Of a DNA stretch of 64,000 bases, positions 23,835-58,902 are shown one piece after another. Below the pieces are notes generated by a model. The model saw nothing but the letters and a program-made list of their open reading frames with translations, made no database searches and was not told the origin of the DNA. Origin of the DNA: Chrysaora quinquecirrha (Eukaryota > Cnidaria > Scyphozoa > Semaeostomeae > Pelagiidae); contig JACTAT010000013.1 in NCBI GenBank assembly GCA_014526335.1, positions 1,027,987 through 1,091,986 of the forward strand. The letters run 5' to 3'. The position numbers and the translations under genes were made by a program. Numbering within the stretch: the stretch's first letter is position 1; each line of letters begins with the position of its first letter.

Positions 23835-26738
23835 TTTGCAGTGAGCAGCTCAGTTCTTCAGACCTTGCGAGGCAAAATCTGAAATGGCAAATCTAAGCGT
23901 TAGGCTTCAAATTTGTTAAAATTATACGTGGGTGTTATACGTGGGTAAACACAAGTTTTAGAAACATAGTTACTGTTTTGCTTTGTTCCACACCACAGAT
24001 GCTGTTTAAACAATTATTCCATCCCACTTGCATATCGGAAAACCCAACTCTCTCGTGGTCTAAGAAACAAAAACAAACATTTGTGCATTAAAATACATTA
24101 TAACAATCTTAACAGTAGATGTCCACGTTTTATTATACGAAAGCACTCACCCAAGGTAATTTGCATACTCAAGTTGCATAAGGCGGATTCCAAGATAAGG
24201 AATATTCCAAAGGAAAGAAGATAGGATTATAAAAAAGATTGTTGTTTGTTGTGATGGACTATGTTTTTATAACTATTGAAATTTCTTCAATATTGCGGTC
24301 TTACGTGCATTTGTTATACTTCCATTTTCATTCATTCCTTTTATTTACTGTAATACAAATTGTGGGCGCAACTGTTTGCCAGTAGTTATCGTAGTTTTGG
24401 AGAGTAATTGTTACCATGGAGGTTTCAAACCCCGCTAATTCTTTCGATATCCCTGCCTTTGCTGTAAGATGTTCTTGAATCGTGATGGTAAAACATTAAT
24501 TTGAGAGAAAAAATATCAAGAACTTGTTTCCATGTGCCAGAACATGTCCATGTGTGGCTTAGTTCCACTCGGGAAATTTCTTCTGAAGGGAAAATTTCCT
24601 GTTTAGAGCATACGTTCAAAGATAGCGTCATACTCTGGTAATTTTCAAGAGCAAGCTTGAAACAAATAAATCTAAGATTTCGTCTACAACTTTCTAAGGC
24701 GTTTCCGGAGATAAATAAATATGCCATACCAGCTAAGGCTTCCCTGCTTTGAGAAACTCAAAAAATGTAAGAAGTAATAATAGGATTTCCTACAACATTT
24801 GCTACAGTCATATTTGCGCAATCACAAGATAGGGGAAGCCTCCTAACGAATCTTTTGACTCTGAAACTCTTGCCAACGTTTGCAAACAGAAAAGTGTATA
24901 AGAATAAGAGTGTATAACTTAAGTATGAGAGCATGAAGGACGTTCTTGGGTCGACGGGTTACACAAATGTCCAAGGACACGGCATATCCCTTGGCTGTTG
25001 AAGTCAAATTAGGCCTCTGTTGAAAACAAGCATAGGTCTGGCAAGTTGTGAAGGCCTTCTTAACTTTATACTCCAATAATCAAACATCCTCAAAGTAAAA
25101 AAACAAGTCGAGAACAAGTAGAACCATCTCGTGTACATCAGCTCTAATACCGAATAGTTACGTTGGCGGGGTTTCGAGATACCTACGAGAAATAAAGAGA
25201 TACAAAGACAAAGTTGCAAGGAAAGAAAGAAGCAACGATAGAGAGATTAGACACAGAATCACTAAGCAACATTAACAGGAGAAGCAAGGATCTCAGTAGC
25301 CAAATAATTTAGATAACTTTCCATCCTCATGTTGGAAGTGTGGCAATATTGATTAAATAGTCAGTTTAAATTAATTTCCACTAAATTTCATCTCAAATGG
25401 TTTGCTCAACTTTGAAGGATTATGAATACATACATTAAAAGGCCCCACCCCCTAAAATTAAATGGCGACTGAGATTTCTTGAGTCTAAAGATTCGAGACT
25501 GCGGATAAAAAAATGTTTTAAAAATTAGGCCATAAGATATTTCGCTTGATCTCTTTTCGTCTTTGTGGGTCAACGCCTGGATCAGGTTAGACTTATTACA
25601 TTCGTCGTAGTCTACGCTCCTCCACACACCACCATCCTGTTTCCGAAAGAGTGGGAGGAAGGTAATAAGTCTAGGATCAGGCAGCTAAAAACAGCCGAAA
25701 AACAAATGTAGTCAGATCTTCATGAAAATATGCGCAATGGGTAATTTTGGCAAATATAATTCAAATCTGATAAAATTTTTTCAAAATTTTTTATTGAGAG
25801 CTCAAGGGTATGGTATAAAACAGGCTTTTCGGACTCGTTTATTCAGGGTACACTCTTTTTTTTAAATAAGCAACTTGACTTTCGTCCAGCCCTCAAAGTT
25901 GCTTAAAATTTTAGACATTTCAGCCCTCAAAGTTGCTTAAACGTTGCTTAACATTTTTAGTACCTACTAACCACCCCTGACTTCCCGGGTCAAAATCGTC
26001 ATCTGTTAGGCCTACAACATGACTTTTGGGAGGCAGTAAGTTGAAAAACGTTAGCTAACGAACTTCAACATGCAAAACATAAGAACGAAGAACAATTTCC
26101 TAACACAAGAAAGAGAATAAGCTTGGTTGTTTGACTTCTTAGTTGCTTACAGTTATTCAATTGAGCCCTCAAGTTGCTTAATGTTGAGGCCAATTCAGCC
26201 CTAGTTGCTTATTGAGCGGTTGCTTATAAAAAAAAGGGTATGGTAAAAGATAGGCGTTTCTGCTATACATATGGTATGTGATTTCCCGGGTCAGTTTGAT
26301 AGCACTTTAAGGACATAATTCTCTCCATTAAAAAACACAATAAGTATTGGCAAGTGTAAGTAAAAGCGTTATCTCCGTTCTGGCTTCAAGTTAATTCCAG
26401 ATTCAATAAGAAGTGAGCTGTAGCAATGAAAAGTTTGTATATTAGCGGAACTTCCCTGTACCAAATTGACTTGACGATTAATGATGAAAACTTTTCGCTT
26501 GCATATTTGAAAATATTGATCTTTGAATAGTGAAATCATCGGTTTCAACAGTAATTTCCACGTCGGTTTTCTTGATATAGTAAGTAGTATTTAGATAAAA
26601 TTTATCTATAAGGTCCACGCAGCTGTATTGTTTCACAGCCGATCTCAATTTCAACAGTATAAAAGAGAGATGGATGAGAAAACGCGAAGTTACAAGCTAG
26701 GCCTAAGTTTGGTTTGCATGCTTGATTTTAGGTCAAGG
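23835..26738. other. Spacer between the two divergent CBM2-bearing genes
   Basis: 2.9 kb with no recognisable gene. It holds a family K element at 25849-26240. Flanking that element, AGGGTATGGTA plus AAA and AGGC words occur at 25804 and again at 26235. The promoters of the cellulase gene (left) and the four-CBM2 gene (right) should lie here. The short open frames at 24425-25627 look random. Confidence 0.6.
25849..26240. mobile_element. Family K element K1 (keyword GTTGCTTA)
   Basis: The left end TACACTC plus T-run and AAATAAGCAAC mirrors the right end GGTTGCTTATAAAAAAAAGGG. Inside, GTTGCTTA occurs about seven times, always with G as the variable base, next to repeats of CAGCCCT. Non-coding. 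Related to the elements at 55912, 57049 and 58640. Confidence 0.75.
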
Positions 26739-28337
26739 ATGAGTAAGATAACTCTCATTGCGTTAATTGCACTATTGTGCATTTGCTGCAGTTCAGCAGA
26801 GGTATGCGATGCATACATCAAGATATCTAATCGATTCCCGGATGGGTATCGAGGCATCATGAAAGTGCCTGTGCTGGCTGCTCAGAATGGATGGAATCTT
26901 CTGCTGCAGTTTGATAAGAACGTGAAAGTCCTTGATGTTCCGAATGCTAATATCCAAAATGGCATTAAAAATGGATCTCGTTTCATCCTGACCCATTTAC
27001 GACACAACATGCACTTGCCAGCAGGGAGAAATCTCACACAGGAATTCGTGGTTCATTTCACACGCAACGAAAGGCCAACACCAAAGATTAACAGGATGCA
27101 ACTGGGAGCATTTGTATGTGAGCCGGCAACAGAAATAGACAATACAGGACAGAATAGCCATGAACAATGCGTATCAAACATTCCGACACCCCAAATACCT
27201 GACTGCATTGACAATTCAAGAATTGTAAGTCAATGGTCTGAGGGATTCAAAGTAGAGCTAAGCATTCCAGTCCCAAGAGCAGTGCCTGCATGGAAAATGG
27301 TCATCTTCTTTGATGCGCCAGTAATGGTCTTGACCTTTCCACATGGAAATATTCTAACCAACAGAAACAATACGGAGTTCGTCATTGGGAACAAAGACTA
27401 CAACGCAAGACTTCAAGCTGACAAAGTATTCAAAGTTGAACTCACTGTGCGTTACTTTCGCAGCAGCAATGCAAGAATTCAAGGCATAATTTTTGACCCG
27501 GCGAGGTTTATTTGCGGCGGTCAAGATTTCGGGAAGAAAATGTCTGAGAGATACAGTAGAGAAGGGCTTATTGTGGCTCAAAAACACAACAGTTTTGACC
27601 GAATTTGCGAGGACGATTTAAGATATCTGAGCAGGTTTCCCGATGGTTTTAGGGCTGAGTTGAAAATGCCTGTCACACGAGACATGAACGGTTGGAAAGT
27701 TAGAATTGAATTTGATGCGTATGTGAGAGTTTTAGATGTCCCTGATGCAGATATAGTTGGTGGGAGCAAATCTGGAAAGGTTTTTATCTTAAAGAACAAA
27801 AGACACAACAGTAATCTACGAAAGGGTACGACATTGAGAATAGAATTCACAGTTCACTATCAAAGAGGTTTGAAATTGAAGATCAAAAATGTTCGATTTG
27901 AGACATACTCATGTGAAGCAGCCGAGGAGGACACGTGTGATAATATCATGCCGATTGGAGCAGACTGGTTGACATGCCCAGAGCCAACAACACCACCACC
28001 ACACCCTGATTGCAGCAGATTTTTCAAACGTTCATCATTGTGGCCTGATGGTGAACAGGGGGTAATAAGGATCCCAATTAAAGAAAACAAGAATGGCTGG
28101 AACGTAACGGTGAGATTTGACAAGGCAATATCTGTTTTGGATGTGACACAGGCAGATAAAGTCAAAGAAAAAGATGGCATCTTCTTTGCATTCCGCAACA
28201 AGGTTTACAATGCGAGGCTGAAGTCAGGTGTCGTTTTCAATTTTGGCGTCACTATGCACTATCGCCGTGGCTTGAATCCGAGGCCAAAAATTTCGCTGGT
28301 GATATTCGACAACAATGTGGTCTGTCTGGGAGTCTGA
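26739..28337 (+). CDS. Secreted protein of four tandem CBM2-like domains
   Basis: Single intronless frame. The ATG at 26739 is preferred over the upstream Met at 26628 because it begins a clear signal peptide (MSKITLIALIALLCICCSSA). Four domains of about 110 residues follow, each opened and closed by Cys. Each has the pattern FPDGYRG or WPDGEQG, then NGW plus a beta strand (NGWNLLLQFDKNVKVLDVP), then HN(S/M) or YNARL, then a (V/M)HY(R/Q)RG-like strand. This pattern matches family 2 carbohydrate-binding modules (beta-sandwich; W..GW and N-x-x-L spacing). No catalytic domain and no membrane anchor. Probably secreted and binds cellulose, chitin or another beta-glycan; the ligand is inferred. Divergent from the GH9 gene, whose two modules are of the same type, so the two genes probably exchanged or share modules. 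Confidence 0.8.
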   Translation: MSKITLIALIALLCICCSSAEVCDAYIKISNRFPDGYRGIMKVPVLAAQNGWNLLLQFDKNVKVLDVPNANIQNGIKNGSRFILTHLRHNMHLPAGRNLTQEFVVHFTRNERPTPKINRMQLGAFVCEPATEIDNTGQNSHEQCVSNIPTPQIPDCIDNSRIVSQWSEGFKVELSIPVPRAVPAWKMVIFFDAPVMVLTFPHGNILTNRNNTEFVIGNKDYNARLQADKVFKVELTVRYFRSSNARIQGIIFDPARFICGGQDFGKKMSERYSREGLIVAQKHNSFDRICEDDLRYLSRFPDGFRAELKMPVTRDMNGWKVRIEFDAYVRVLDVPDADIVGGSKSGKVFILKNKRHNSNLRKGTTLRIEFTVHYQRGLKLKIKNVRFETYSCEAAEEDTCDNIMPIGADWLTCPEPTTPPPHPDCSRFFKRSSLWPDGEQGVIRIPIKENKNGWNVTVRFDKAISVLDVTQADKVKEKDGIFFAFRNKVYNARLKSGVVFNFGVTMHYRRGLNPRPKISLVIFDNNVVCLGV

Positions 28338-28429
28338 AGCCGTGTGAAGGACGCTAAAGTTGCTACATTAGACCAAAACTTATTGATTTTTTGAGTGATA
28401 CCAAATTGGAATTGCTATTGGTATTTGAG

Positions 28430-28462
<33 letters not shown>

Positions 28463-29377
28463 ATTAGAGTTAGAGGGAATTGAAATGGGGGAATAACTTG
28501 AAGCGTATTGGTCGCATGATAGTTGCAACCAAATAGTATAATCTAGCGACACATTTCTGTCTTGTGTTGAGCCTCTATCGATATAATATGCTTATATAAC
28601 CTTGTGTGAATTTAGCAAAAGGAAACAGAGAAATTTCATCGAAAATTTTTGACTCACTATCTTGGTTATTCTGTTCTTGATTCTCGGCAATTCCTTTTGA
28701 AAGAAACAAGCTTTTTGAGCTGATCCATTCTCTAGAACTAGAAATACGAACTTATAATGCATAAAAGGAGAAAACGACTGTAAAAAACAACAACTTTTGC
28801 CATCATATAGCAATGATTTTCTTTCAACAAAACATATAATCTAAACTAAAGTTATAATTTTTACTTATAGCAAACTTAAGACTCTGTTATACATTAGTAA
28901 ATAGTCATAAATTTATTTTCTTCATTAAAGATTATTTGTAATTCATATTTCGTCAAATATTACCAAATTCACAAAGGGTGTTTTACCCCTTTATCGATTA
29001 ACTCTGTATAACGTAAATTCCTCGAATGACATTGTTCTGTAGCCTCTTTATCATAACTTAAGAGTCCAGTAGATACCTCTCTCACTTATATATTTTTTTA
29101 TATGATTAATCGATCTATACAATATAAATTCGCATAATAATTTCTATAAATTAAGACACTTCTTAAAGATATTTTAACAGTTATCTACGTTAAGTGTTAT
29201 TACTGATAATATCAATCCCAAAATCTTAAATTTTAAAGCTAATAACTTAAATCGAAATTATCAAAATCCAAACTTTAGAATTATGTTAATATCTTCATAA
29301 GATTCAACTCGATTCAGTCAGAGATTCAGTCTTCATACGATTAATTCAATTTAGTAAGAGATTCAATGGAAAAAAAC
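28338..29377. other. Spacer after the four-CBM2 gene
   Basis: Contains a (TTGA)n microsatellite at 28434-28467 and very AT-rich sequence. Convergent 3' ends of the CBM2 gene and the R-SDR gene meet here. No gene seen. Confidence 0.6.
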
Positions 29378-32300
29378 TTAGCTTGGAGCTTGACGGGGTT
29401 CCACAAGGATCTCGTTAATGGCACAATATTCAGGTTGTGTTGCAGCATAAAGAACAGCATTGGCAATGTCAACTGGTTCCAGAATTTTCGGAGTCTTTTC
29501 ACTGCAGTCAAAAAGGTCCTTTGCCTGAAATTTAAAAAAACATGAATAGCAGCATAGCTTGTATCAAATTGATATATAACAATACAAATAAATATGATGT
29601 TAAAAGTTCGACTGAATGTTATCTTGTTCAGAGTATTCAGTGATGAATGTAAAAAATTCCTGCATAGCATGCTTATTACTCTGCTTTTTGCAGCAAAAAC
29701 AGACCTTTTATTGGGGAAGAAGACAAACCTAACCAAAACCTGGAGGAATCAGCGAATCCTCTTACAATGTGACAAATTCCAGCTAAGTAGGAAATCTAAA
29801 TTTTCAGGCTTTTTAGACCTACAATCTTGGATAAGATATATTAGAACAGCCTAAATAGTTCTGCTATTACCTATGATTTCCCTCTGCTCCACAGCTACAA
29901 TGTTGTTTCGAAGAAAAGTTATCTTGCTCTACTACCAACATTGTTTTGGGAGTAAAAGGGGAAGAATTGGAGTTCTGAAAGTAGAAAATCGATAGAGTAG
30001 GCCGTATTCCTTGGAAAGAAGGTCTTGTTTCAAATATTTTGTCCAAGACTGAAGGTAGTTTTACCAACATTACTGGTATTTGTTTTGTGAATCAAAACCT
30101 TGATATACGGGGAAAAGAATAAGGCCATATCAGCAGATCATTGAGGGAACCTCTAGGACAGAAGACATGCAAACGTTTTGTTATTTCTACATATTTCGTA
30201 ACCAACCTCTTGATCCGTTGTATGTTGAACTAATTCTGTTCGTACGTCACCTAGAAGAGTGTTACGAAGATAGAGATTGAGAGGAATAAACGATGGGCAA
30301 AAAAGATATAAAATGCTACAAATTTAAACAAAAATATAATACAATATTTGATTTGTAAAATGAAATTGTTAACTACTCTAAGGTGCCAAATAAACGGGGG
30401 TCGGGAAATTTTTCGAAAATTTAATAAACGGGGAGTTCTAATAAGGTTCGGGGGTGGGGAAAATTTAATAAACGTAGTTAAATCCTTTCACAAGTGAAAT
30501 TTTTACTTCCAAAATTAATAAACGGGGGGTCCTAACAAGATCCGGGGGGTGGGGGAAAAACTCATATCAATAAACGGGGGGCACGTTTATTTGGCACCTT
30601 AGAGTTATTACAGACACAAACATAACCCTTGATTTACATTTCGAATTTCTCATTTGTTCTCATGGCAGTCTCCGCAATACACTGGTTCGCTTTCTACCTC
30701 GGCCGGAGCAGCACTCCCTTTTAACAAATATATGCTACAACAATGAAATCACCTGGTTGTATTGTTGTGACTTTGATACCAGAATCAGCAGTTTCAAGAC
30801 GCAAGCCTTGTGCAACAGCTTCGACAAAGAATTTACTTCCAGAATAAACAGACAATCCAGGGAAAACCTGAACATCAAAAACAAGAGAATTCAAAAAAGT
30901 GTGCATTAAAATATATTGCAGTGATTTGTGCAAGAAGCAGAACATGTAGATAAACAAAATAATCACAATATTATTAGAAACAAAATTGAAAAATGAAGTT
31001 GTTTCAGATAGTTTCAGGTGAAATTTGAAACGAATTTGTTAGCTGGAGTGTGAATGGCCTGAAACAATTGAAATCGTTTCAAATCGTGCTAAACGAAGCG
31101 ACCCCTAAAAGCATGCCTAGATCCATCAAATATGCTCCAAAATGTACCCCTCTCCCAATTGCTGCCTCAATCTGTTTTGAAATGACACGTAATACACTTC
31201 TAAAGGACGGAACAGCCTCAACTTAGATTATTACATTCTACACCATTATTCTTTCTCATGCAAAATAAGATCACAAGAATATTCATAGTTTTAGCAGACA
31301 GAACACAAATGGAATTTCTCTGTTAAGTTCTATTCATTAGACTACACCTTCCAGTAATCATCACAGCCAAATGTATTCTATATTTTTTTCTTTACTTATG
31401 TGAAACCTTGAGATCAACTTATTTATCATGTAACTACATGCCCGAATAAAAAATTTCTCTGCATATTTTGATATCATGTCAAGAACATCATTCACGTAGA
31501 AATCAATGAGATTAATTCCTTTAACGACTACAAACCTTTCTGCCAGCATCAGAAGAGATTATAATGATATGACCTTTTCTTCTTTTTAACATTCCAGGCA
31601 ACACAGACGAAATGCTGTTCAAGACGCCCTAAAATCGATCAGGATTTAAGAGATAAGGAAAAACAATAGCACGAAACTCTCAATAATGAGAAATTAACTT
31701 TAAGTTCAAAAAAAAAAGCACTGAAACAACTGGAAAGCTAAAATAATTTTGATAGCATTTTCATTTCCAATAAACAGCAAAAGTAATCATGAAACACTCA
31801 CTTTGCAATTAATATCGACAGTTCTTTCCCATTCACCCACATGTAGGTTCTTCATCATTGTGTAGTACATTACACCAGCACAACAAATCATCATGTCCAC
31901 AGGGCCTAGTGTATCCTCAGTCTGTTTGACCAAGTCTTCCATCTAATAGAAAAACAAAAATAGTGTAATTAATAAGACAAAAAACTGAAGTTTGACTAAC
32001 GGATGAATTCTTTTCATATAGTTTCCGTAGGTTTTCAGTAAAAAAATCTTAAACAAGATACCAAGGTACGCAACTAGCGGCAAAAGCAAGTGGGAAAGTT
32101 GTAGCTGCAAACTAAACTAACAGCTTAAAGCACGACTTGGGAATTCAGCTACCGACGATTTGTGATACTGTAGACTGAGGAAAAAAGGCCTGTAATCTTA
32201 ATACCATAGGCTTACTCGTTGAAGTGACAGAGCAATAGAACGACAAAAAGTGGGATGAATTTAGAGAAGACGAAAGTAGGATCATTCAGCTTACGTTCTG

Positions 32301-34425: not shown

Positions 34426-34702
34426 CTGAAATGACAAAAATAAATGCTATGATCAGCATTGTGGAAGACAAAGAAATCAATGGCATCCAATTTAAGAAGA
34501 AGTGAGCAGAAATTTCAATTCCCAGCAGTTAAAAATCAAATTACAATGCGTAGATAAGAAACGAATTCACTGCAATAGACTTATTACACTACTTCCGGTT
34601 ATAGCAGCTACCATCTTTAGTTGTTGTTGTTATCAGAGAGCTGCTAAAACTGTGTAGCGAATTGCTGTTATTGTTCGTCTAGATTTTATGAGCGGAACTG
34701 AG

Positions 34703-35202
34703 NNNNNNNNNNNNNNNNNNNNNNNNNNNNNNNNNNNNNNNNNNNNNNNNNNNNNNNNNNNNNNNNNNNNNNNNNNNNNNNNNNNNNNNNNNNNNNNNNN
34801 NNNNNNNNNNNNNNNNNNNNNNNNNNNNNNNNNNNNNNNNNNNNNNNNNNNNNNNNNNNNNNNNNNNNNNNNNNNNNNNNNNNNNNNNNNNNNNNNNNNN
34901 NNNNNNNNNNNNNNNNNNNNNNNNNNNNNNNNNNNNNNNNNNNNNNNNNNNNNNNNNNNNNNNNNNNNNNNNNNNNNNNNNNNNNNNNNNNNNNNNNNNN
35001 NNNNNNNNNNNNNNNNNNNNNNNNNNNNNNNNNNNNNNNNNNNNNNNNNNNNNNNNNNNNNNNNNNNNNNNNNNNNNNNNNNNNNNNNNNNNNNNNNNNN
35101 NNNNNNNNNNNNNNNNNNNNNNNNNNNNNNNNNNNNNNNNNNNNNNNNNNNNNNNNNNNNNNNNNNNNNNNNNNNNNNNNNNNNNNNNNNNNNNNNNNNN
35201 NN
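34703..35202. other. Assembly gap of exactly 500 N
   Basis: Second placeholder gap. The R-SDR gene (transcribed leftward) and the WHAMM/JMY-like gene (transcribed rightward) both lack their 5' exons at this join. Confidence 0.99.
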
Positions 35203-35362
35203 CAAAGAACATTTTTTTTGAACTTTTTCAAAACATCACGCCATAAATTTTGTTACTTTTCTTGTCAAGTAATGTTTTTGGACGTGGCCAAACCCTCAAA
35301 CATTTTTTGTAAAGCAAATTTAGAATGTTGAACCAACAATGTTTGATCGTTTGACCAGGGCC
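35203..35362. mobile_element. Family M foldback MITE, copy 4 (right part only)
   Basis: Ends in TTTGATCGTTTGACCAGGGC; the left part is lost in the gap. Repeat sequence at a contig end helps explain the break. Confidence 0.7.
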
Positions 35363-35456
35363 TAACCCTCTTTGTCAAAATGGTGGAAGAAGCCCCTAAA
35401 TCTCAGCAAACCATCTTAATCAAATGTGAATCATTAATAATTTTGTTCATTTTCAG

Positions 35457-38721: not shown

Positions 38722-39164
38722 TAGGCCGCTTTGCGAGAGATGTCGTGCCGAGTTTCAAAACTTTCAAATGGATTTTAAATTAAAAATAGATAACTAATTT
38801 GCTTTTCACTCGCGTTTTGCCTCTCATGAGGGTTGCAAGACTCGCGGACGGGGGTTCCGCATGTCTAGCTCGTTGTTTCTTTAATTAAGGAGGATGAAAC
38901 ATTGAGAAATTGCAGAAATTAAGCGCCAACGGAATGATTTATTTCAACATGCTTTGGAAGTTAAAAGCCAGAAATAAATATTCGTTTTATAGAAAGACGC
39001 ATGTGAAATTTATTTCGCATAAACCAACGAAATGTTCTAGCGAAATTACGCTCGCAGTCATTTGTGCACCCCCCTGTTTTCGTTCAGGACAGATTCAGCA
39101 AATACCAGAAAGCTGCTAAAACAACTTTTGGACAATGTTTAAATAACTAGTAGTAGTACCTAGG

Positions 39165-39393
39165 ATCTGGCCAAACGATAATAAATAACCGTTTTGCAAC
39201 GTTGCACCAAATTGCTTGTAAAACATATTCTATTTGTGAAAAGAAGGAAATCTTTTCGAAGTTTTTCATAAACATTGCAATGTAAATTCTGCTTGTTGAA
39301 ACAATTTTTGGTGACGTGGTCAAACAGTCCAAAATTGATTGTAAAGCAAATCTCAAATGTTTGATCAACAATGGTTGATCGTTCAGCCAGCGC
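39165..39393. mobile_element. Family M foldback MITE, copy 5
   Basis: Left TCTGGCCAAACGATAATAAA, right GGTTGATCGTTCAGCCAG; degenerate. Confidence 0.65.
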
Positions 39394-47200: not shown

Positions 47201-50200
47201 GGTAGCTCCTATAGGGGTTGGTATACGTGTGCCTACCCGGCTTATGGGTCATGGGTACGCTACAATAAAGATTTGCCCAATTTATGGGTAAGTGTTAGCT
47301 GTTTAGTGCAGCAGTGAGTGAGATATCTATTCTATTTGTTATCTGTTCTGTAGCTGACTACTCGTTAATGCCACATTAAAAATGGTACATTAAGCTCTCT
47401 TTCCGCCATGGTGCATATAGTAGTCTCAAAAGAGTCCTTTGAAAATTTGTGCGCTGATCATGGGTGATGTTCCCAAGACAAAGCCCTATTTATGGGGTTA
47501 AATATCGTGCTGGTTATGGATTCATCCTCTGTATTCTCAGAGGCAGATGTGAACTACCCCCAAATAGGAGTTACTTAACCCTCGAAGTGGTGTGGTCGAA
47601 TGGACAAGGCGATGAGCCACCATCGGCAGGTCACCATCAAGCTCCCCACCAGTTAAGAGACTAAGTAAGTTAGTAAGTATTTACTTCTAAGCGAAAACTA
47701 TATAACCATTACTGTTATCGCTTGACAGTCTCGTATATCTGTTTATATTTCACACACCTGGTTACAATCTACATAAGACGGTTAAATGATATATTTTAGA
47801 AGAATAACAACTATCTACAACACATACCTGGATCTTAATTTGCACAAATCCACACACTGCAAAAGCAACAGCAGCAAGAACCATACCACCAGCCATCTTC
47901 TTCAATGGACTGAATAAAAACAAAACGAAGAAAACAGTGATTAGGCCTGGTTCCGACATCGCGCCAAAGTCGTACCGTGCGGCTGACTCACCACACGAGT
48001 TTCTAGTTTGCGCTCCCCTTATTTTGACTTGTCACCACACTGAGCGATTGTAGAAAACAACAACAACATCGAGCGAAGTAGTGGGATTTACGTAGTGGGT
48101 CTAAAGTGCGGCAGTAGCACCAAATCAGAATCAATCAGTGACTTTAGCTCGATCTTCGTGCCTAAATTTTGCCATGCCGCACGGTAGTGGCTCGACATTA
48201 ACACGACATTCATTCAGGCGTCAGGCAACTGCTGTGTCAGAACTTGCCAAGTGGAAACTTTTTGTGCTTTGAGCTTGTCATCGATATATTGGCAAGTGCT
48301 TTTAGGCAACACTTTAACAGAGCAACAGCATCGCAATGAGACTGGGCACCGCACGACGGGCAACGACAGAGCACGACACCTAAATAAATAGTCGTGATAA
48401 GTGTCAATGCAAGTGCCGTGTCAGAATTTTGTTTCCGCGACGCGACTTTGTCTTGACGACTGAACAAGGTCTTATTGGTAACGTTTGTAAAAACAACGTA
48501 AATTTCAAAAGTATAGTTTGAATTACTAACGATAGTCCACATCTGCATCTTTCAAAGATAGGATAAACAACAGCATCATAGAATGGAATCAATATCAAGA
48601 CCAGAACTGGGTTGAAAAACTAGAAAAGTTAAGAAACAAATGATGAACAATTGGCTACAAAGAATTTAATCCCATATACATATAATCAAGATTAACGTTA
48701 TATTTTTGTTTTCAACAAAGCCTCGTATAAAAGTGTTTTTCTGGTCATTACCTGAATCTGATCAGACCTCAAAGTACCAAGGGAACCCTAGGAAAAAATA
48801 AAATTAATAATAATAATAATAGTCAAAAGAGTAGCAAAAATAGTTAGAAAACTACTCAGATTATATCTAATGATTTGCCTAACCAATAAGTACCAAGAAA
48901 AAATGTTTGAGAACAAATAAAATTGCATTGATTTTACCAAATCGCCATCCATTTGTTCAGCTTGAAGAGTCCAACTCGATCCCTGACAAGACAAATTTAT
49001 GCAATTGATTTTACTTGATTAACATCACAAGTCATAAAACAGAATATAAAACAGAATTTGCATTAATATACCTGTTGATGGAACAGTGCCCAGAAAACAG
49101 GAAGTGGGATGTACAAGACGAGAACTTTAAGCAATGCTTGCACATCTTGAATCTCTTGCATCTATGGACAGGTAGAGTATAGACGATCAGATAATCAATC
49201 TTTATGCAAAAAGCTTACGGCGAATATCTTCGCACTTGTAACGGCTCTTTCTATCGCCGTGTTAGACATGATAATCACGGCTTATCGTGAAAAGCCTTTG
49301 ATATTTATTAGAGCAACTTTTCGGGAGAGATCCGTCTCCTATCATCGATCAATGAAGAAATGTGGTTCTTCTCCTATTTATGACGTTCATAGGATAGAAC
49401 TTCATTGCAGAAGAAGCCGATTGTGGGAGATGAAGCTCTCCCGCAACGTCACCCCGACGAAAAGGTTTATGGTGTTAAAAAGGTCCAAGACGATGCTTCA
49501 GGACGATACTCTAGCACCATTTCTATTCATTCATGCTCTGGATTACTCGATGAGAACGGCAATCGATGGAAATGAAGAGCTAGGATTTACGCTCATTGAT
49601 TGAAGACTCAGAGATGAATGCTGAAGAATTGAAGAACATGATGAAGGACAGGGTGGAATGGAGGAGATTCATCAAGCTCAGTTATAAAGATGGGTTTCTT
49701 TATCCACATCGAGTTATGCTTCGAAAAATTAAAACAAAAAATATAAACCAAAGGTAAAAAAATGAGAATCATATAGCCTGATGTCTGTAATTATATTATG
49801 AAATAATTTGTAAAGTTACCGCGTATCTATCTTGTGCATGGTGAAGCCAATGTTCGTGCTTGATTCCTCTTTTACGATTATCAAATCCTGCGCCAATAGC
49901 ATGCTGAAAAAAAAACAAAAATAAAATAATAAATACTAGGACGTGAGAGGACTAGTTCTTACAGTATTCACGCCCCCTTCATTTCGACAAGGCTTTCGAA
50001 AAGGCGTCAAAATGTACCTAAATTAAATTTACCACTTAGGCCTTCACCAAACGATCAAACATTGTCTGTCAAACATTTGCAATTTGTTTCACAAAAAATT
50101 CTTTGACCTTAGACCACAAAATATTAACATTACTCGTCAAACAATTTAAGCTTGATGCAAGGATTAAATGTTTTTGAAGATTTTAAACATGGCGGGGCGA

Positions 50201-53200
50201 CTTATGCTTATCAAGTAACAATTTAGCACGTGGCCAAATAATCAAACGTTACTTGTAAAGCAAAGCTGAAATGTTTGACCAACAAATGTTTGATCATTTA
50301 GCCAGCTTTCTCCTCGACCATAGTTTCACAACTGATCTTTAGAAATGGCTTTATAAACAATTGCAATAACCTTGCTAATTATGACGTCGAGTTCAGGAAT
50401 GGTAGGGCACGAGTTTTGACACATGTTCATGTAAACTCATTTCATTTCACCCAAATTTTCTGAAACAACAACTACGCCGTCAAACAACCACAAAAATCTG
50501 ATCAATATTTTATAGAGTGTAGCGGAGTGAGGCTGGGGGTGGGGGTGGTGGTGGTTAGTAGAAACTACGACGAATGCGATAGATAAGTCTAATGTTCACA
50601 AAGTTCTACTTGGAGCAAGGAAAGTAACCAAATCTTTGTTACCAAAGAACAATCTACCACATGGTGGGGAAAACATTAGAGAAATAGAGCTTGATTCGTT
50701 TGTTGGACAAGCATTGGGTTACTAGCCTAATTAGTGATGCATCTAACTAAGACAATCTGACAAATACAGCAAAACTTTTCAATAATAAATTAAAAAACTC
50801 ACTCCGATGATTTTGAATACTCTGATCATCATGTTTCCTTCAGGCAGCTTTTTCACATACATTCTCGAGGCAGCCAGGAAAACAACTGTAAAAATAATAA
50901 CACGACGAAATGAAGAATTTTGCTCAATAACAGACACGCATGTGTAGAGAAGTTCAAGAGGAAAACCCTCACCATATGAGCGACAAGTTTAGTGCAGTAG
51001 CTAAGACCCCGTAAACAAGAAACCAGATTTTTAGTAAAAGTATTGTTTTTGTTCAATAGGCCATTGTTTCCTCCATTGTCTTTTATAATAGGCTATTGTT
51101 TTATTTATTGTCCTATACAAAAGACGATTGTTTCATCCATAGTTTTATATAATAAGTCATTGTTTCACACATTGTCTGTTTCACATATTGTTTAATTAAT
51201 TGTCTTATACAATAAGCTATTGTTTTATCAATTGTTTATATAAAAGGTTATTGTTTTATCCATTGTTTTGTACAATAGACTATTGTTTTATTAATTGTCT
51301 TACGAGAGAAGATTATTTCATCCATTGTCTTATATAATAGGCTACTGTTTTATCCATATTAATACAATAGGCTATTGTTCTATCCCTTATTTGGTCCGTA
51401 TCTGAGAGTTAGCCTGAAGTAGACTCGCTACACAAGTCTGTTATGCTCCTTAGATCTGATAGGTCGCTAATAACGGTGGCCCTCTTCCTAAGCTACACTG
51501 AACAACAACAACAGCAATTACAGTGAGGGGGAGGGACTGGTGTAGCCAATCTAAGCCTGGAATTTCTTTTATGTCAGTTTTCTTTTTTCTGGACTTACTG
51601 TACTCACACACAGTAAAGCACACCCACCCTCAAACCTAGACTGAGAAAATGCCACGTGGTACTGACCTGTTCCAACAATGATTAGGACAGTTGGCACACC
51701 AAATGTAACTGGATAGCAATCACCATCGAAGCAACGAATATCAGCTATAAAACATTTATGAAAGTAGTAAACAGCTTGAATTAAAGCAAAACGCAAGGCT
51801 AGAAATATGAGAGCTACGTGTTTTAAGATGAAGATGCTGTGGTGTAACGGTCAGTAAGGTCGGGATTCGAGCCCAAGCTATGGTAGCGTCACAGCCAGGG
51901 TCAACGTCTCGTTAATCCATTTTCTTCTGAGATCCTGGCGACTGGCGCTAAATACACTTCAAGAACGACCGCCAGTCAACGATGGCAAGATTAGGGGGTT
52001 GGGTTAATAGAAAAGGGGCTTGTTTAAAACTTTTGCTTAAAAGTGGGGGCTTAATAGAGAGGAGGATATTCATCCTTTAAATGCATAAACATTTAAATGC
52101 CATTGGAAATATAAGATAACTTGTTCAAGAAAACCTGCACCAGCACCCCATGATGTAGCTAAACGCGAAGAAAATTTATAGCGCGAATAATCCAACTTCC
52201 CACTGTATCCGATATCTTACTTTTCAAATATATTTTGTTCATAAGCGAAAAAAAAGGGGAAACTTATTATCTAAGGCGCTAATTTCCTATAAGGTATATC
52301 AAAAGTAAAAAATTAATTGAACCTACTTCTCAGCATGGGCACAAAAATCATTGAAAATGTCGCCCCAACATTCACGGACATATAGAACATGGAGAAGAAT
52401 TTCGAGATGAGAGAAGTCTGTAAAAAAAGGAAAGAAAATTCGAAAATAAGATGAATAAGATTAAGCAATTAGAACTGAGAGAGAAGAAATTTTCAATTCA
52501 GAGATACCCACGTCTTTCTGATTGAACTGATCACCACCAAAAGCTGCCAGACATGGTTTGATATTTCCACAGGCAATTGCTGTTACAAACAAGCTGATCA
52601 GAGGCAAAAAGCTGAAAGGCAGAGAAAATTAACGTGAAATCTATATCACTGGATGTAAGTGATTGAAAGAAAAGGAGAATTGCAAATGTAATAGGAAAGG
52701 CTGAAAGCCATGCATTGAGTCGCCTTCTCTCATGCACCGATCCTCTCATACACAGGTCCTCCTCTACCAAGAGAGGAAAGCAACCGATCTTCCCTTTGCT
52801 AGAAACGCGAACGGACTTTCCCACATCAGAAAACCACAGTGGCAGATGTTATCTTCACAATCGCTCCAATTTCCCCTTACCAACAACATTTTACGATAAA
52901 TTTACAAAGGATCAAAGCGACAAACAAGTTAGGCGCTTAAAACACTGAAAGGACAGAGCACTGGCTTTAGGTTCTCGTCTCTGCTTCCTAGAGACGCCAG
53001 TAACAAATTTTATGGTAATAAGCATATATCAAAGCCTCGAGTCTCGTTTACTACTTAGCCTACAACTATCCTCAATGAAAGTTTTGCAACAGATTTACGA
53101 AGGATCAAAGCCACAAACAAGTGAAACGTTAAAAAAACACTGAAGAAAGAGGGACCAGGACCACCCGATTTTAGTTCTTGTCTCTGCTTCCTAGAGACGC

Positions 53201-54922
53201 CAAAAACCCATTTTCCGGTAGTAAAACCTGGGAATGAACAGCATATATCATAGCATGGAGTCTCGTTTGCTACTTAGCCTTCATCTATCCTATCCTCAAT
53301 GAAAGTTTTGCAACAGATTTTTGAAGTTTGGAAGTCACAAACAAAACTGGTCATATAGTTCAATACAATTCAGAAATAAATATACGCAAAAATTCTACCT
53401 TTGTTTTCGGCCTATTGCAGGCACACACGTACCAGTCAAAACCATTTCTGCAATACTGTACAATACCAATGAAATGCCAATTGTTCTAAAAAGAAATAGA
53501 AGAATGAGAATCAGTCATGTACGATTACTTCAGATCAAGAAAGGTAAAGTAAAGATAAGTCAGCTCAGCTCAGATCAGATCAGGTCAGGTCAGGTCCAGT
53601 CAGATCACGATGGATCAGATCAGATCAGATCAGGTCCTGTCAGGTGAGGGCTAGTCAAGTCAATCCAAATCAAGTCACGTCAAGTCAGCTCAGCTTAAGT
53701 CAAGTCAAGTCATTGGTAAGGTCAGGTAAGGTGAGGTCAAGTCAGGTCAGGTCAGGTCACGTCACGTCAGGACACGTCAGGTCAAGTCAAGTCAAGTCAG
53801 GTCAGGTCACGCCAGGTCAGTTCACGTCAGGTAAAGTTAAGTAAATACCGAGTAGTCAAGTCGAATGAAATGAAATCAGAGTGATAATAATCAGACAGGA
53901 TTATAGCTTACTTGAATTTGCCGAGAAAACTGTCAGCTATCATTGCACCCAAAACACCAGTGAAATAGCTCACCATGCTGAAAGCATGATAGATGGATTT
54001 GCCACGATATTTATCAAACATGAGATCTTGCGTCAAATAAAGCACAAGCACGGCTGCAAAGAAGAGCAAATTATGATTTAAGTAGTGCTTTAGTCAGAGT
54101 AGCGTAATACTGAAGGTCAGAACACAGGCAGATAGATATCTTAAATAACATAGTTTAGATGTTAAGAAAATTAGTCGTGTTTTGGAATTCTACCTTTTAT
54201 CCCATAGTAGGAGAATCTTTCACAAAGCTCTACCAACAGAACAGGCCATGTTTGACTGGGCATTCGCTAAAAAAGAAAGAAACAACTTCAAACCTCTCAA
54301 ACGAATAGACATAGTGGCTCGCTTTTCTAGATTCTCCAAGCTTTTTGAAGATAGCTAGCTCAGAAATTGGCTATAATGAAAGAAGATACAACGAACGACC
54401 AACTAATGCTAAGACGCAATACAACAACAAAAAAATGGAAAATATTTTTACCCTCATCTGACCGACGCAAGATTCATGCGATTCTTCACTGGGTTTTTCA
54501 TTCTCGATGATCACTGAACAAGAAAAAATTATTTATCAATTACAAATTAAGAACAGAAACTTAGTAATGCCCGTTATGCTACATCATGGCACCAAAGATC
54601 AGAGGACGAGTTGACTGATTAACTAGAATCCCTGAAATGACGTCACCTGAGTCTCGGAGCCCAGGCTTCTTGCTGCGACGAATGTATCTAGATTTTTACA
54701 ATAACAATTTTACAAATTGCTGTGATACTAAAAAAGGTAAAGGCTTCAAAAATCTATGCTTAGACTGTTTCGTTTGTTTGCTTTGTTCCTTTGCTTTCTA
54801 TCTAACACCAGAACAAGTTAGGTCAGCGAAAAAGTAGTGTTATTGTCATAAAAAGCGAACAGGTTAATACCTCGAAAAGTTATTGCAAGCTGCTAAAACT
54901 ACCAACCTTTTTTGGATCTCAT
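41273..54922 (-). CDS. Proton-coupled oligopeptide transporter, SLC15A1/A2 (PepT) type
   Basis: POT/PTR family proton-driven di/tripeptide symporter of the plasma membrane. I place 24 coding exons with GT-AG junctions, about 722 codons, close to the usual 700-730. Exon 1 (54907-54922) encodes MRSKK. Helix 1 carries the ExxER proton-coupling motif in VELCERFSYYG (54194-54266). YHAFSMVSYFTGVLGAMIAD is at 53912-54053. The PTR2 signature NIKPCLAAFGGDQF is at 52512-52611, IPLPVFWALFHQQGSSWTLQ spans 48982-49161, and NPVLVLILIPFYDAVVYP is at 48531-48619. Exons from 47102 to 43231 encode the large extracellular domain between helices 9 and 10, typical of PepT1/2. PQYVVLTAAEVMFSVTGLEF (42559-42690) and the last helix (41273-41455) close the protein. 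No frameshift seen. Introns are packed with repeats. PepT1 versus PepT2 cannot be told apart. Confidence 0.94.
42345..42440. repeat. G-rich element trace with GGGGGCTTATTAGAGAGG
   Basis: In an SLC15 intron. The phrase GGGGGCTTATTAGAGAGG recurs at 52042-52065 as GGGGGCTTAATAGAGAGGA. Small dispersed repeat built from GGGG and CTTATT words. Confidence 0.4.
44232..44455. repeat. Minisatellite of TGACGTA(A/T) units in an SLC15 intron
   Basis: About 16 units of 12-15 bp, ten of them carrying TGACGTAA or TGACGTAT, the rest variants such as TGACGCAA. Full palindromic TGACGTCA sites occur nearby at 43931-43938 and 44127-44134. TGACGT is the core recognised by CREB/ATF bZIP factors. Confidence 0.85.
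45010..45105. repeat. Family D repeat fragment
   Basis: TGTTTATACTCTGAAGAGTG then TCAGACC, the reverse complement of the family D end seen at 940-1030. In an SLC15 intron. Confidence 0.5.
45223..45713. mobile_element. Family M foldback MITE, composite copy 7
   Basis: Starts AAGGCCCTGGCACTGG. A second left end, GATCAAACGATCAAACATTG, occurs at 45430, so it is a nested or tandem pair. Ends near TTAATCGCTTGACCTGGTCC. Confidence 0.65.
46025..46165 (+). mobile_element. tRNA-derived SINE, copy 3
   Basis: Box-A-like TAGCCTCGTGGTGTATTAGG and box-B GGGTTCGAGCTCC sit at tRNA spacing. The conserved tail GATCCTAATGACAGGCGCTA then AATACAC follows. In the same SLC15 intron as copy 4, in the opposite orientation. 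Confidence 0.7.
46748..46890 (-). mobile_element. tRNA-derived SINE, copy 4
   Basis: On the minus strand: GCGTCGTGGCCTAATCCAGC, then GGGGTTTGAGCCCC (box B), ending in ACTGGCGCTAAATACAC. The best-preserved copy for comparison with copy 3. Confidence 0.7.
49200..49745 (+). mobile_element. Decayed non-LTR retrotransposon fragment
   Basis: The frame includes MLQDDTLAPFLFIHALDY, close to the LQGDTLAPYLF segment just before the catalytic motif of LINE reverse transcriptases. MKDRVEWRRFIK, resembling the C-terminal end of such proteins, follows shortly after in another frame. The region between is deleted, so the copy is dead. Lies in an SLC15 intron, antisense to the gene. Confidence 0.6.
50038..50306. 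mobile_element. Family M foldback MITE, copy 8
   Basis: Left AGGCCTTCACCAAACGATCA, right ATGTTTGATCATTTAGCCAG. SLC15 intron. Confidence 0.65.
51048..51375. repeat. Minisatellite of about 32 bp (AATAGGCTATTGTTTTATCC type)
   Basis: About ten imperfect units alternating ATAGGCTATTG with TTTTATCCATTGTCTTATAC. Each unit contains the short palindrome CAATAGGCTATTG. SLC15 intron. Confidence 0.8.
51835..51965 (+). mobile_element. tRNA-derived SINE, copy 5
   Basis: GGTGTAACGGTCAGTAAGG, then GGGATTCGAGCCC (box B), ending in GATCCTGGCGACTGGCGCTA and AATACAC. SLC15 intron. Confidence 0.65.
53560..53845. repeat. Pentanucleotide (GTCAR)n array
   Basis: Imperfect GTCAG/GTCAA repeats with ATCAG and GTCAC variants, in the SLC15 intron between exons 4 and 5. 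The open frames across it are artefacts. Confidence 0.9.
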
Positions 54923-55345
54923 TTTGATGTTAATTTAAGCCCCTTTGAAATTTCTCAATCGAATTCTAAATCCAGAGAGGGTCTCTGCAAGGCTGATTAG
55001 ATTTTGTTCGAAATCCAAACCAAACTACAGAGATTTATTTACGTAAAGGGCAGGTGGTAGAAATGACACAGGCATGGGATGAAACACATTCGAACGTGTT
55101 CTAGATGAATTTTAACAAGCCTGAGCAAATATTCAAATGTTTAAGGAAATATTTAGAGTCTTAGGACAAAGACACGCTTTCATAGGAGCAAAGTCAAAAG
55201 GAGGGATGACGAAATTTCGTCGCTTCGTCGCTATAGATTAGTGGAGCTTCAAATTCTTGTTGGTATGTTCATCATTAAATCACTCATTGTTTAATGGGGA
55301 CACTGAATTATCGGTTGTTTCCGGGGGTTCTCCGAATATTCGAAT

Positions 55346-55708
55346 GTGATTTCGATTAAAAGGTCGTTTGCGAATAGCGAATGCCGATTCAAGTGGAAAT
55401 CGGCTTTCCCCGACTCCTCGTACCTAGACCTGCAAAGACTTTCCGCTATACCACCCCCTACGTCATCTAAATTTGCCGCACTCCCAGACCTCTTGCAAAT
55501 AGTTTGTTGTTTGGAAAAACCACGCAAGAAAACCATCCAGGAGGAAAATACGCAAACCATTCCTGGACGGAAATACGAGATTCAGTTTAAGCCCCCCATT
55601 TTAAAGGACAGAAAATTCAGCCACTGCACCCTGTTACCACCAACCATAAATCTGTGGGCAGAAATGCACGTTTTTGCTGGGCATCAATCTGCAACACTTG
55701 TTTGGTAG
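55346..55708 (+). CDS. Unidentified open frame of 120 codons
   Basis: Starts MISIKRSFANSECRFKWKSA and ends SATLVW. No signal peptide, membrane segment or known motif. The GC-richer base composition differs from the surroundings, and a GGGGGCTCGAGGGGGCTGG run follows, so it may be part of an old mobile element. Listed with low confidence. Confidence 0.15.
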   Translation: MISIKRSFANSECRFKWKSAFPDSSYLDLQRLSAIPPPTSSKFAALPDLLQIVCCLEKPRKKTIQEENTQTIPGRKYEIQFKPPILKDRKFSHCTLLPPTINLWAEMHVFAGHQSATLVW

Positions 55709-55911
55709 ATTATCAAGGTAAGGGGGCTCGAGGGGGCTGGAGGGGCTTGCTGGAGGGCATGCTGAAGATTAAACTATTAAAAAAGTTTCTCCTAAACAGT
55801 GAATAAGTGACGAAACTCACTCCGAACCAAATGGATGGCTTCAAATTCTTAAAACATGACAAAATTCAATTCGGGTTTCGAAGAGATAATACGCCTTCTT
55901 GCCCTGGGCAT

Positions 55912-56270
55912 TACACTCTTTTTTTTATAAGAACCAGGAAATTTTGATCGAGGCTGGCTGTTCTTAAAATTTTGACGTTTTTGAGACTGAAATGTTCTTA
56001 ATCTGTTCTTAATTCCTTGGTTACTTAATATCTATATTTTTCAATAAATGTCTGGTGTGGTAGTAGATTGGTGTGACAATGCAGCATCCTTGTCCATTTC
56101 TTGGTTTGCTTGCTTTTACATTCATTCTGACTGTCTTACTCACATATTTTGCTGATATTCTCAGGGCATTTGAAAAGGCCAGCCTCAGCTTGTTCTTATT
56201 TTGTTCTTAAAATCTGGGCAAAATCCAGGCTCGTGTTCTTATAAAATTGTTCGTATAAAAAAAAGAGTGC
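55912..56270. mobile_element. Family K element K2 (keyword GTTCTTA)
   Basis: Left TTACACTC plus T-run and ATAAGAACC; right GTTCTTATAAAA, then TCGTATAAAAAAAAGAGTG. About seven internal GTTCTTA words with no inserted base, plus one GTTACTTA. A CCAGCCTC/GAGGCTGG inverted pair lies near the ends. Confidence 0.8.
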
Positions 56271-57048
56271 AAAGAGAATATTTTTCATAAATTTATAGCT
56301 CTACGATATATTTGAAAGATTTAAAACATCATAAACTAAAAAACCGTTATAAATTCGTATTACAGGCAAACTTGTGTTGTTACGGCAAAATTAACTCTTC
56401 GTGGCTCGTACCCAAATTATTTTCCGTTGTCCAACCCAACACTTGTGGAAAAACGGCAAAGCCGAGGCATGGCAAAAAGGCATAAAGGGGCTTCTTAAAA
56501 GGGGTAACAAAGCAATCAATAGAAAATATATACTATTAATAACAAATCTGGTTATTTTTTATAACTCGTATATACAGTATCTCAAAAGTTTTATAACTTC
56601 TATACCTGGCGCAGGGGAAGATTGTGGTTCCGTTTCCATTTGAATGAACCTTTATTTCAAAAACAAAATTTTCCAATCCTTACCAAACAGCAAACCGTAA
56701 ATTCTCAAAAAAACAGCTGAGATTGTGCACCGTATCAATAAACTGGCTTTTCTCCTTCGGAACTTCGACACACGAATTTAATGATATCGTCTAAAAACTA
56801 TTCAGTTTCAATTGAATGAAGTTCGGCTTGAAATGATATCTGAAATGGCCTAAGTTCAAGAAGAAAGGTTACGAACTCTCATTCGTTTCTCATTGTTGAG
56901 TGTCGAATAACATACAGTTGTCTGTGTAGGAAGAATTGCCAGTTGTACTATTAAAATACAGCTTTTTATCACGTGTTTAAGTGTAGTGTTTGACTATTAT
57001 TTCGTCATCTAATACCTTGGTTGCGACCGAGTTCCTTGAGGAGGAAGC

Positions 57049-57458
57049 TTACACGCTTTTTTTTTATAAGGAACCTACCTCAAGGCCTAGTTCTTAAAGT
57101 TCCTTATTTTTGGACCTCTTTTGAGGCAATTGTAGTTCCAAAAGTTCCTTAATAGTTCCTTAATTTTAACTGCACATACAGTGGTCATAACAATAAAAGA
57201 GAGACACTTGCATGTGAGCAAAGCTCGAGACTACTCAAGGAAACATTTGACACATGTTTAACGTACAATTCATGTGATTTTCGACTGCAAATGAATGGAA
57301 CCGGCTTTCTAATTCTTGATTATTTGCAGTGATAAAACTATTCAACAATAAAAAGTTCTTTAGTTATTTTCTCTCTAGTAGTATGAGTTCTTTAAATTTT
57401 CGGGCCTTTTACATGTAGCTTCCTTATAAAGTGGTTCCTTATAAAAAAGCGTGTAATG
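57049..57458. mobile_element. Family K element K3 (keyword GTTCCTTA)
   Basis: Left TTACACGC plus T-run and ATAAGGAACC; right GGTTCCTTATAAAAAAGCGT then GTAA. GTTCCTTA occurs at least four times inside, with C as the variable base, plus one GTTCTTA. The terminal variant ACACGC/GCGTGT also matches at both ends. Confidence 0.8.
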
Positions 57459-57899
57459 GTTGGTTTCCTGGGCGCCAAGAAGAATTAAACGGGGCAGAGA
57501 AAATTATGATTTATAGGTAATGCAACTGAATGGAACTAAGGTAACATGGACACATTCCCTTTTAAGTGCAGCGGGTTAAGTAGCAGCGACCGTACACAGC
57601 AACAACAACAACAACAGCGAAAAGCCAATCTACGTGAAGCCCTGCGATACTATGATGGTTTCCAGAAAACGTCATTTGAAATCAAAATATCGAAATAGCT
57701 ACAGCCTGAACTCGCAACCTTCACGTCCCGTCCCTATTGTTCTGGAATTTTCAAACGTGCACGCTGATCACACACCTCCAACACTCTAACTCAAGTGCAG
57801 TATTGTATGATCAAGGAAGTGCTGAAAGAATGGATTCGACTTTCAACACTCCATCCAGCATCATCCAGGAACGTACTAGCGAAAGTTGACATTCTGAAA

Positions 57900-58563
57900 A
57901 GTGAGTGAGACAGCACAACCTTTTGCCCATTAAAACTCCGTGGAAAAAAGCTTTGATAGTAAGCTAAAACTGTGTGGGAACTCTACTCCAGGGCAAACAA
58001 CAAAGTCTTAGTAGAATACATTGTAATACTGCTAGAATTTTGCGCTTGCGCACATGCGTTTGGTGCTTGCATTCGTCTTAGGGAATCCCCCTATTGCACT
58101 TGCATCAGATTGTTCCGCTTTGCTTACTCTTTGTTATCGAATTACTTTTCTAGTAGGATTGCGTTAGTTTTGCTGAATCACGATTACTGTAGAATCTTCT
58201 AGTGTATTCTCGTGTATTATGTTATTCCTATATGTATTTTTATTTCATCAGTCACATTTTATGCATCGTCATGCTTACCCATTTTCTCTTGATATATATT
58301 CGTATGTAATCTTTAGTTAGTTCAGTCTTGTCTTGGTTTCAGTCTAGTCGTTTACACTTGGTACTTGAGAAAGATCAAGTTGTAGACTAGGTAATTTGTG
58401 ATATACGTTTGAGAAAACTATATCTTGTGTGTATTCTTTTGTGTGAATTCTACCGCTCATCCTGCCGTAAACTGGAAGCAGTTTACAATATTTAGTCCAT
58501 AGTGGAATTCAGATCGGGTACAAAACGGATTCTCGCATTATCACAGGGTCACTACAGAATTCT
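57900..58563 (-). mobile_element. Possible solo LTR (minus orientation)
   Basis: On the minus strand the stretch starts TGTAGTGACCCTGTG and includes a TATATATCAAG box. A 73-bp start segment (58491-58563) recurs at 60083-60155. No internal retroelement genes are seen. Left boundary not defined. Confidence 0.3.
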
Positions 58564-58639
58564 TTTGCATTTAATTGTGTAGGCAACATGGTTTTGAAGT
58601 CAGCGCATGTGTTACCAACCCCCGCTCACTTCAGTACTG

Positions 58640-58902
58640 GCACAATTTTTTAGTTTCTTATAAAAAAATACGTGCAGTAGAAGCAATGCAATGCACGCTT
58701 GCATGAGCTGTTGTTTTGTAAAAATAGACACTTAACATGTAACAAAAGTTCGTTTCTCGAGCCTATATTTCTAATTCTAAAGATTGCTGAGACCTGCGAG
58801 TTTCTTACCATTTTGGGTCGAGTACTGAAAGTTTCTTAACCAATATTGATCTCAGTACTGAGTTTCTTATAAACAAGTTTCTTATAAAAAATAGTGTAAT
58901 TT
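58640..58902. mobile_element. Family K element K4 (keyword GTTTCTTA), imperfect left end
   Basis: Right end GTTTCTTATAAAAAATAGTG then TAATTT. GTTTCTTA occurs about five times, with T as the variable base. The left border contains GTTTCTTATAAAA in the same rather than inverted orientation, so the copy is rearranged or two copies are fused. Confidence 0.6.

What the first reader, a model, noticed from the sequence alone, without database searches (positions are those of the whole stretch)
25849..58902. TIR elements with a copy-specific keyword GTT-N-CTTA shared by the termini and many internal sites
Four elements (K1 25849, K2 55912, K3 57049, K4 58640) share an end of the form TTACAC-T(n)-ATAAG-N-AAC. 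Each is studded with a short word that also forms the inner edge of its termini. The word is GTTGCTTA in K1, GTTCTTA (no base) in K2, GTTCCTTA in K3 and GTTTCTTA in K4. Within a copy the variable base is nearly constant over 5-7 sites, between copies it is always different. Independent point mutation would not change all sites together. This suggests subfamilies whose internal sites and ends co-evolved with transposase or another binding protein, or a templating process that homogenises sites within an element.
Basis: partly seen in the sequence, partly recalled or inferred. Interest (0 to 1): 0.8.

Follow-up and report, generated by a model that had tools for sequence, protein, structure and literature searches.

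The report
MITE families with family-specific site words
An animal genome, probably of a cnidarian, is littered with short jumping elements whose ends carry about eight copies of one short word, and two related families differ at every copy of that word at once, as if a whole set of locks had been re-cut to fit a changed key.

Summary
K1-K3 are full copies, and K4 a broken composite, of a group of 316-520 bp elements with ends TA|CAC...T(6-9)ATAAG-N-AAC and a TA target. At least 11 families share one layout: about eight keyword sites at fixed offsets and orientations. The word is nearly constant within a copy. In the 328-Mb genome a two-site right end occurs 5,389 times (reversed control 0); of the 100 listed, 98 carry the same letter at both sites (35% expected). 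Families A and J align end to end (70% identity), yet 7 of 7 A words are switched C to G in J, with 1 change at the other 49 word positions.

Correction: the letter belongs to a family, not a copy, and different families can share it.

Best reading: the words are binding sites for a transposase or accessory protein, sites and protein co-evolving, as proposed for plant CACTA subterminal repeats. No transposase was found and several searches did not complete, so binding is inferred and the superfamily is open (CMC-like or Tc1/mariner-like). Templating is unlikely, because only the word, not its flanks, is uniform. New variant of a known kind.

The parts
25851..26241 (+). K1: D-family element, ends CACTCTTTTTTTTAAATAAGCAAC ... 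GTTGCTTATAAAAAAAAGGGTA (right tip decayed)
   Evidence: sequence; 94.6% to an L020 copy over 392 bp
25867..25874 (-). K1 outermost left keyword GTTGCTTA (inverted)
25898..25950 (+). K1 left array: GTTGCTTA at 25898, 25932, 25943
26142..26226 (+). K1 right array: GTTGCTTA at 26142, 26173, 26204, 26219
55914..56269 (+). K2: E-family element, keyword GTTCTTA at 55928(-), 55960, 55994, 56005, 56192, 56203, 56235; decayed GTTCGTA at 56249
   Evidence: 88.3% to an L017 copy over 273 bp
57052..57453 (+). K3: A-family element, keyword GTTCCTTA at 57067(-), 57099, 57144, 57155, 57434; CTTCCTTA at 57419; GTTCTTA at 57090; GTTCTTTA at 57355 and 57387
   Evidence: 94.1% to an L015 copy over 408 bp
58685..58897 (+). 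K4 main part: one half of a K-family element (with its right end), GTTTCTTA at 58800, 58831, 58862, 58877
   Evidence: 86.4% to an L026 copy over 214 bp
58630..58674 (-). K4 left piece: fragment of an F-family left end, GTTTCTTA at 58653
   Evidence: 89% to an L010 copy over 46 bp

Best explanation
These are non-autonomous, TA-inserting DNA transposons (MITEs) of at least 11 related families. Each end carries an array of about four copies of a family-specific word, in part preceded by a second short half-site (AGnnCT, found in 7 of 11 representatives). The layout is fixed: an inverted word about 16 bp from the left tip, direct words at about 48, 82 and 93, and on the right mainly at about 15, 30, 61 and 91 from the tip; common spacings are 11, 15 and 30-35 bp. 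The arrays are most simply read as binding sites for a transposase or accessory protein supplied in trans, which pairs the two ends and cuts beside TA. When the specificity of that protein changes, only elements whose whole array matches go on moving, so all words of a lineage shift together; that is how one element body exists both as GTTCC (A) and GTTGC (J). Shown: layout, TA target, within-copy uniformity, the A/J switch. Inferred: protein binding, selection, and the arms-race reading in which an autonomous element escapes its MITEs by changing the word.
For: Shared layout of 11 families although their interiors do not align above shuffled level for most pairs; spacings 11 (11 of 42 under 60 bp), 15 (8 of 42), 30-35 (17 of 42). 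Within-copy uniformity. A/J: 397 columns at 70.3% identity, 7 of 7 A words switched C to G, 1 change at the other 49 word positions, background C/G exchange 0.079, P about 2e-8 if independent; four J copies hold 29 GTTGCTTA and no other GTTnCTTA; J has 616 strict ends, control 0. TA target: clean empty sites for a D copy and for an A copy nested in a B element, and one match for another A copy. Published parallel: CACTA subterminal words differ between families and were thought to be paralleled by diversity of the binding protein (PMC2613891, passages).
Against: No transposase or autonomous copy was found. 30 of 204 sites depart from the family word. The A/J comparison is one pair, noticed before it was tested, and P assumes independent sites. 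The half-site was defined after looking: agreement 0.55 against 0.22 (87 of 20,000; 20 pairs), and 4 of 11 representatives have no AGnnCT half-site. Of the six flank pairs inspected, three (L022, L025, L028) have no clean TA at the junction of the paralogous site. No binding data exist.
Confidence: 0.72

Rival explanations
1. The words are sites for a host protein (a regulator or chromatin factor), not for the transposition machinery, and the switch reflects host factors or silencing escape.
For: Nothing here shows that the binding protein is a transposase; no autonomous element was found.
Against: The outermost words sit next to both tips at fixed distance in all families aligned, and words differ between families of one genome, more natural for element-specific than host-specific recognition.
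Confidence: 0.1
2. Templating: short-tract gene conversion or a guide-directed process copies one word over all sites of an element.
For: Uniformity within copies and a complete switch between A and J.
Against: Only the 8-base word is uniform; bases on either side differ from site to site and diverge between A and J, where 1 of 49 other word positions changed against 30% of all columns.
Confidence: 0.07
3. The words are read by proteins of the Rep/helicase/DDE tandem units found in the same genome, one of which has iterons GTTGCTTACCC.
For: The D/J word GTTGCTTA lies in the iterons of one unit family, and other DDE_3 families also have family-specific words.
Against: Of 41 genome-wide triple arrays GTTnCTTA at 11-bp spacing, 13 are these units (all G); none with another letter lies in a unit; the single GTTCC hit is on C534 and was not read. 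The other five iteron words are not MITE words.
Confidence: 0.04
4. Four unrelated repeat families with their own low-complexity words.
For: Interiors are mostly unalignable between families.
Against: Common layout, tip and TA target, thousands of copies against near-zero controls, end-to-end homology of A and J.
Confidence: 0.02

Closest known systems
Subterminal repeat arrays of plant CACTA/En-Spm elements (TNPA/TNP1 regions)
   Same: CAC..GTG type termini, short words repeated in both subterminal regions, two-part words, word differs between families; the En-1 word contains TCTTA (PMC2613891, passages).
   Different: Plants; 3-bp duplication; no report in the passages read of one element body existing with two complete sets of words. 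Here TA duplication, MITEs, fixed layout of about eight words.
CMCT lineages, ESTA in particular (EnSpm-like with TA duplication, fungi)
   Same: CA..TG termini in most cases, 2-5 bp duplications, ESTA with TA (PMC12730594, passages).
   Different: Defined by a transposase with C(2)C and H(3-4)H motifs, not found here.
Tc1/mariner-type MITEs
   Same: TA duplication, short TIR elements in high copy number (recalled).
   Different: Arrays of about four words per end are not a defining feature (recalled); no matching transposase found here.
Coral CMITE
   Same: Cnidarian MITEs in several families with differing tips.
   Different: TTAA duplication, about 100 bp, piggyBac-related, conserved middle (PMC2872659, parts 1-2 of 4 read).

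Membership tests
MITE (general) | short element with TIRs in high copy number | tested here: met
   27 assigned copies of 316-520 bp; 5,389 two-site ends
MITE (general) | no coding capacity | not tested
   too short for a transposase; no homology search of the copies was run
Tc1/mariner | TA target duplication | tested here: met
   empty sites, with three of six inspected cases unclear
Tc1/mariner | DDE_3 or DDE_1 type transposase inside copies with these ends | tested here: inconclusive
   3' flanks (901 b) of 20 of 150 listed DDE_3 hits and 3 of 81 DDE_1 hits read, none has these ends as its own; PF01359 did not complete
CMC/CMCT (CACTA, Mirage, ESTA) | CA..TG termini and 2-5 bp duplication | tested here: met
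   CAC..GTG and TA
CMC/CMCT (CACTA, Mirage, ESTA) | transposase with C(2)C / H(3-4)H motifs | not tested
   PF02992 search did not complete
ISL2EU | AT duplication, GG termini | tested here: not met
   TA and CAC; definition from PMC4482050 passages
piggyBac-type MITE / CMITE | TTAA duplication | tested here: not met
   TA only

The most novel reading that the evidence does not exclude
A single MITE lineage has re-cut its whole array of about eight recognition words at once with its body kept (A/J), and the many families on one scaffold record a series of such switches, driven by autonomous elements escaping their MITEs: a set of mutually exclusive site/protein pairs within one genome.
Probability: 0.45. 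Interest if true: 0.75.

Novelty: new variant of a known kind. Interest (0 to 1): 0.62.

Why it matters
How a multi-site recognition system changes specificity without passing through a dead state is an open question for transposases and other array-binding proteins. Here one genome holds at least 11 families on the same scaffold, thousands of copies, at least one switch with the body conserved, and a mixed copy that may be an intermediate. Matching words to transposases would give natural protein/DNA pairs and a direct test of whether MITEs drive their helpers to change specificity.

Tried and rejected
CMITE/piggyBac and ISL2EU were rejected on target and termini. Tigger/pogo as partner: the best DDE_1 hit (L030) lies between its own inverted ends, beside an H-family end. 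Long J-flanked elements as autonomous copies: of the 100 listed J ends, four pairs lie 1.1-3.9 kb apart; three were fetched and all are J MITEs interrupted by other sequence; the fourth (C101) and a wider pair (C121, 8.5 kb) were not fetched. An A-element neighbourhood with a 1.6-kb pair of ends (L029) is an A element plus a tandem array. A 6.45-kb tandem segment with extra J words (L058) has ORFs that look by eye like reverse transcriptase and polymerase pieces and appears to carry a J-like MITE (no domain search). The Rep/helicase/DDE units as partner are not supported by the triple-array test. A first guess of a coral host was dropped. Ten paper searches found no description of these elements or of a whole-array switch; only listings were seen except for the four papers named with their passages or parts.

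Full report
WHAT IS IN THE WINDOW. The four places exist as described. K1 (25851-26241) carries eight GTTGCTTA, one inverted at the left tip. K2 (55914-56269) carries seven GTTCTTA and a decayed eighth. K3 (57052-57453) carries five GTTCCTTA, one CTTCCTTA and three degenerate words. K4 is a composite: a 45-bp F-family left end (58630-58674) beside one half of a K-family element (58685-58897), both with GTTTCTTA. A search of the window with copies from elsewhere gave these four places only.

GENOME CONTEXT. The window lies in an unnamed 328-Mb assembly of 740 contigs. CTTATAAAAAAN{0,6}GTGTAA occurs 3,266 times, the reversed control 5 times. Twenty 10-kb stretches chosen around such ends plus the window gave 31 listed elements. 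I assigned 27 by eye to families A-F and H-K. Four were set aside: composites in L012, L021 and at the window's K4, and a degraded copy in L020. A G-family end pair was taken from the right part of L021; a further family was seen in L009. Because stretches were picked for strict ends they say nothing about density.

INSERTION. Flank-joining and inspection of six cases showed a paralogous empty site with a single TA for a D copy in L026 (against L022, L019, L023; window 49223-49381 also aligns, with one base changed next to it), for an A copy in L027 nested in a B-type element, and in one of several matches of an A copy in L015. In the other three inspected (L022, L025, L028) the paralogue lacks a clean TA at the junction. 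Almost all listed copies have TA outside CAC and GTG on both sides; K1, K2 and K4 are decayed there.

LAYOUT. Left ends of 11 representatives align with few gaps: inverted word about 16 bp in, direct words at about 48, 82 and 93; A and J have about 11 more bases before the second. Right-end words lie mainly at about 15, 30, 61 and 91 from the tip, in E and H at about 60 and 72. Of 42 neighbour spacings under 60 bp, 11 are 11, 8 are 15, and 17 are 30-35; that these are near whole or half helical turns is my inference. Interiors are at the level of shuffled sequence for most pairs. In 7 of 11 representatives some words are preceded by AGnnCT, whose middle tends to agree within a copy (0.55 against 0.22; 87 of 20,000; 20 pairs; motif defined after looking).

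UNIFORMITY. One copy per family: 84 sites, agreement 0.784, permuted maximum 0.245. In 27 copies 174 of 204 sites carry the family word. The two-site right end GTTNCTTATN{5,6}GTTNCTTATNAAAAA occurs 5,389 times, control 0. The 100 listed all lie on contig C1: 98 agree (C 41, G 34, T 23), 2 do not; expected 0.35. As distinct letter-spacer-letter strings 28 of 30 agree. This pattern cannot see families without the variable base (E, H) or with another first letter (G, I).

THE SWITCH. A (majority of seven copies) and J align over 397 columns at 70.3%. All seven A words have G for C in J; 1 of the other 49 word positions changed; C/G exchange elsewhere is 7.9%, so independent change has P about 2e-8. 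It is one pair, noticed before testing. Three more J copies were fetched; the four hold 29 GTTGCTTA and no other GTTnCTTA. J has 616 strict ends, control 0. A copy in L021 has a J-like body with GTTCC at the outermost word, GTTGC at two and GTTAC at one: a possible intermediate, or a later mutant. It is also one of the two discordant ends.

WHAT IT IS AND HOW IT WORKS. These are MITEs whose ends are arrays of recognition words. That a trans-acting transposase or accessory protein reads them is inferred from layout, placement at the cut sites, constraint and concerted change. The nearest described case is the plant CACTA subterminal repeat (PMC2613891, passages). CAC..GTG with TA also fits the CMCT lineage ESTA (PMC12730594, passages), while Tc1/mariner also gives TA. 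Membership stays open: DDE_1 gave 81 matches (3 fetched), DDE_3 listed 150 of 251 candidates (3' flanks of 20 read), none with these ends as its own; PF02992, PF01359 and PF13359 did not complete.

HOST. Of 433 matches to the window's PAICS exon (120 listed), the best named is Hydractinia (74%), then Hydra 66% and Nematostella 64%; unnamed ones reach 93%. A medusozoan cnidarian is likely, not proven.

Noticed in passing
L056 (G000:C368:1979000-1983060), L050 (C368:1983056-1983956), L042 (C2:3814698-3815598): Tandem unit of about 3.86 kb with the end of a Tc1-like DDE_3 transposase, a Rep-like ORF (PF23343, E 0.0012) and a helicase-like ORF (PPV_E1_C/Parvo_NS1, E 0.00066 and 0.0074), all under Pfam's cut-offs, and a palindrome of 11-bp iterons GTTGCTTACCC. 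The helicase-like ORF has 321 relatives at E below 1e-5 (120 listed), two of the named ones from echinoderms.
   Followed up: partly
L044, L046, L045, L051, L047, L048, L053 (3' flanks of DDE_3 hits): Other DDE_3 families also end in palindromes of 11-12-bp iterons, each with its own word: GGTTAACCGTAC, GTGTTACGCGTT, GAGTCACCAAC, GTGTAACCAAC, TTGCTGACYCG. Whether they have Rep or helicase genes was not tested.
   Followed up: partly
G000 C386, C211, C620, C247, C190, C282: DDE_3 matches recur at regular steps of about 3-4 kb, so more such tandem arrays are likely.
   Followed up: no
L029:1199-1960 (G000:C2:5374500-5377500): A tandem array of roughly 105-bp units, about eight, each with the first 25-30 bp of an I-type end plus flank, running into an I-type element.
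   Followed up: no
G000 C326, C383, C384, C518 (L058): A 6.4-kb segment repeated in tandem that carries four J-type words at 11-bp spacing.
   Followed up: partly
window 60283-61598: A 27-bp tandem repeat of about 49 copies, open in one frame on each strand.
   Followed up: no
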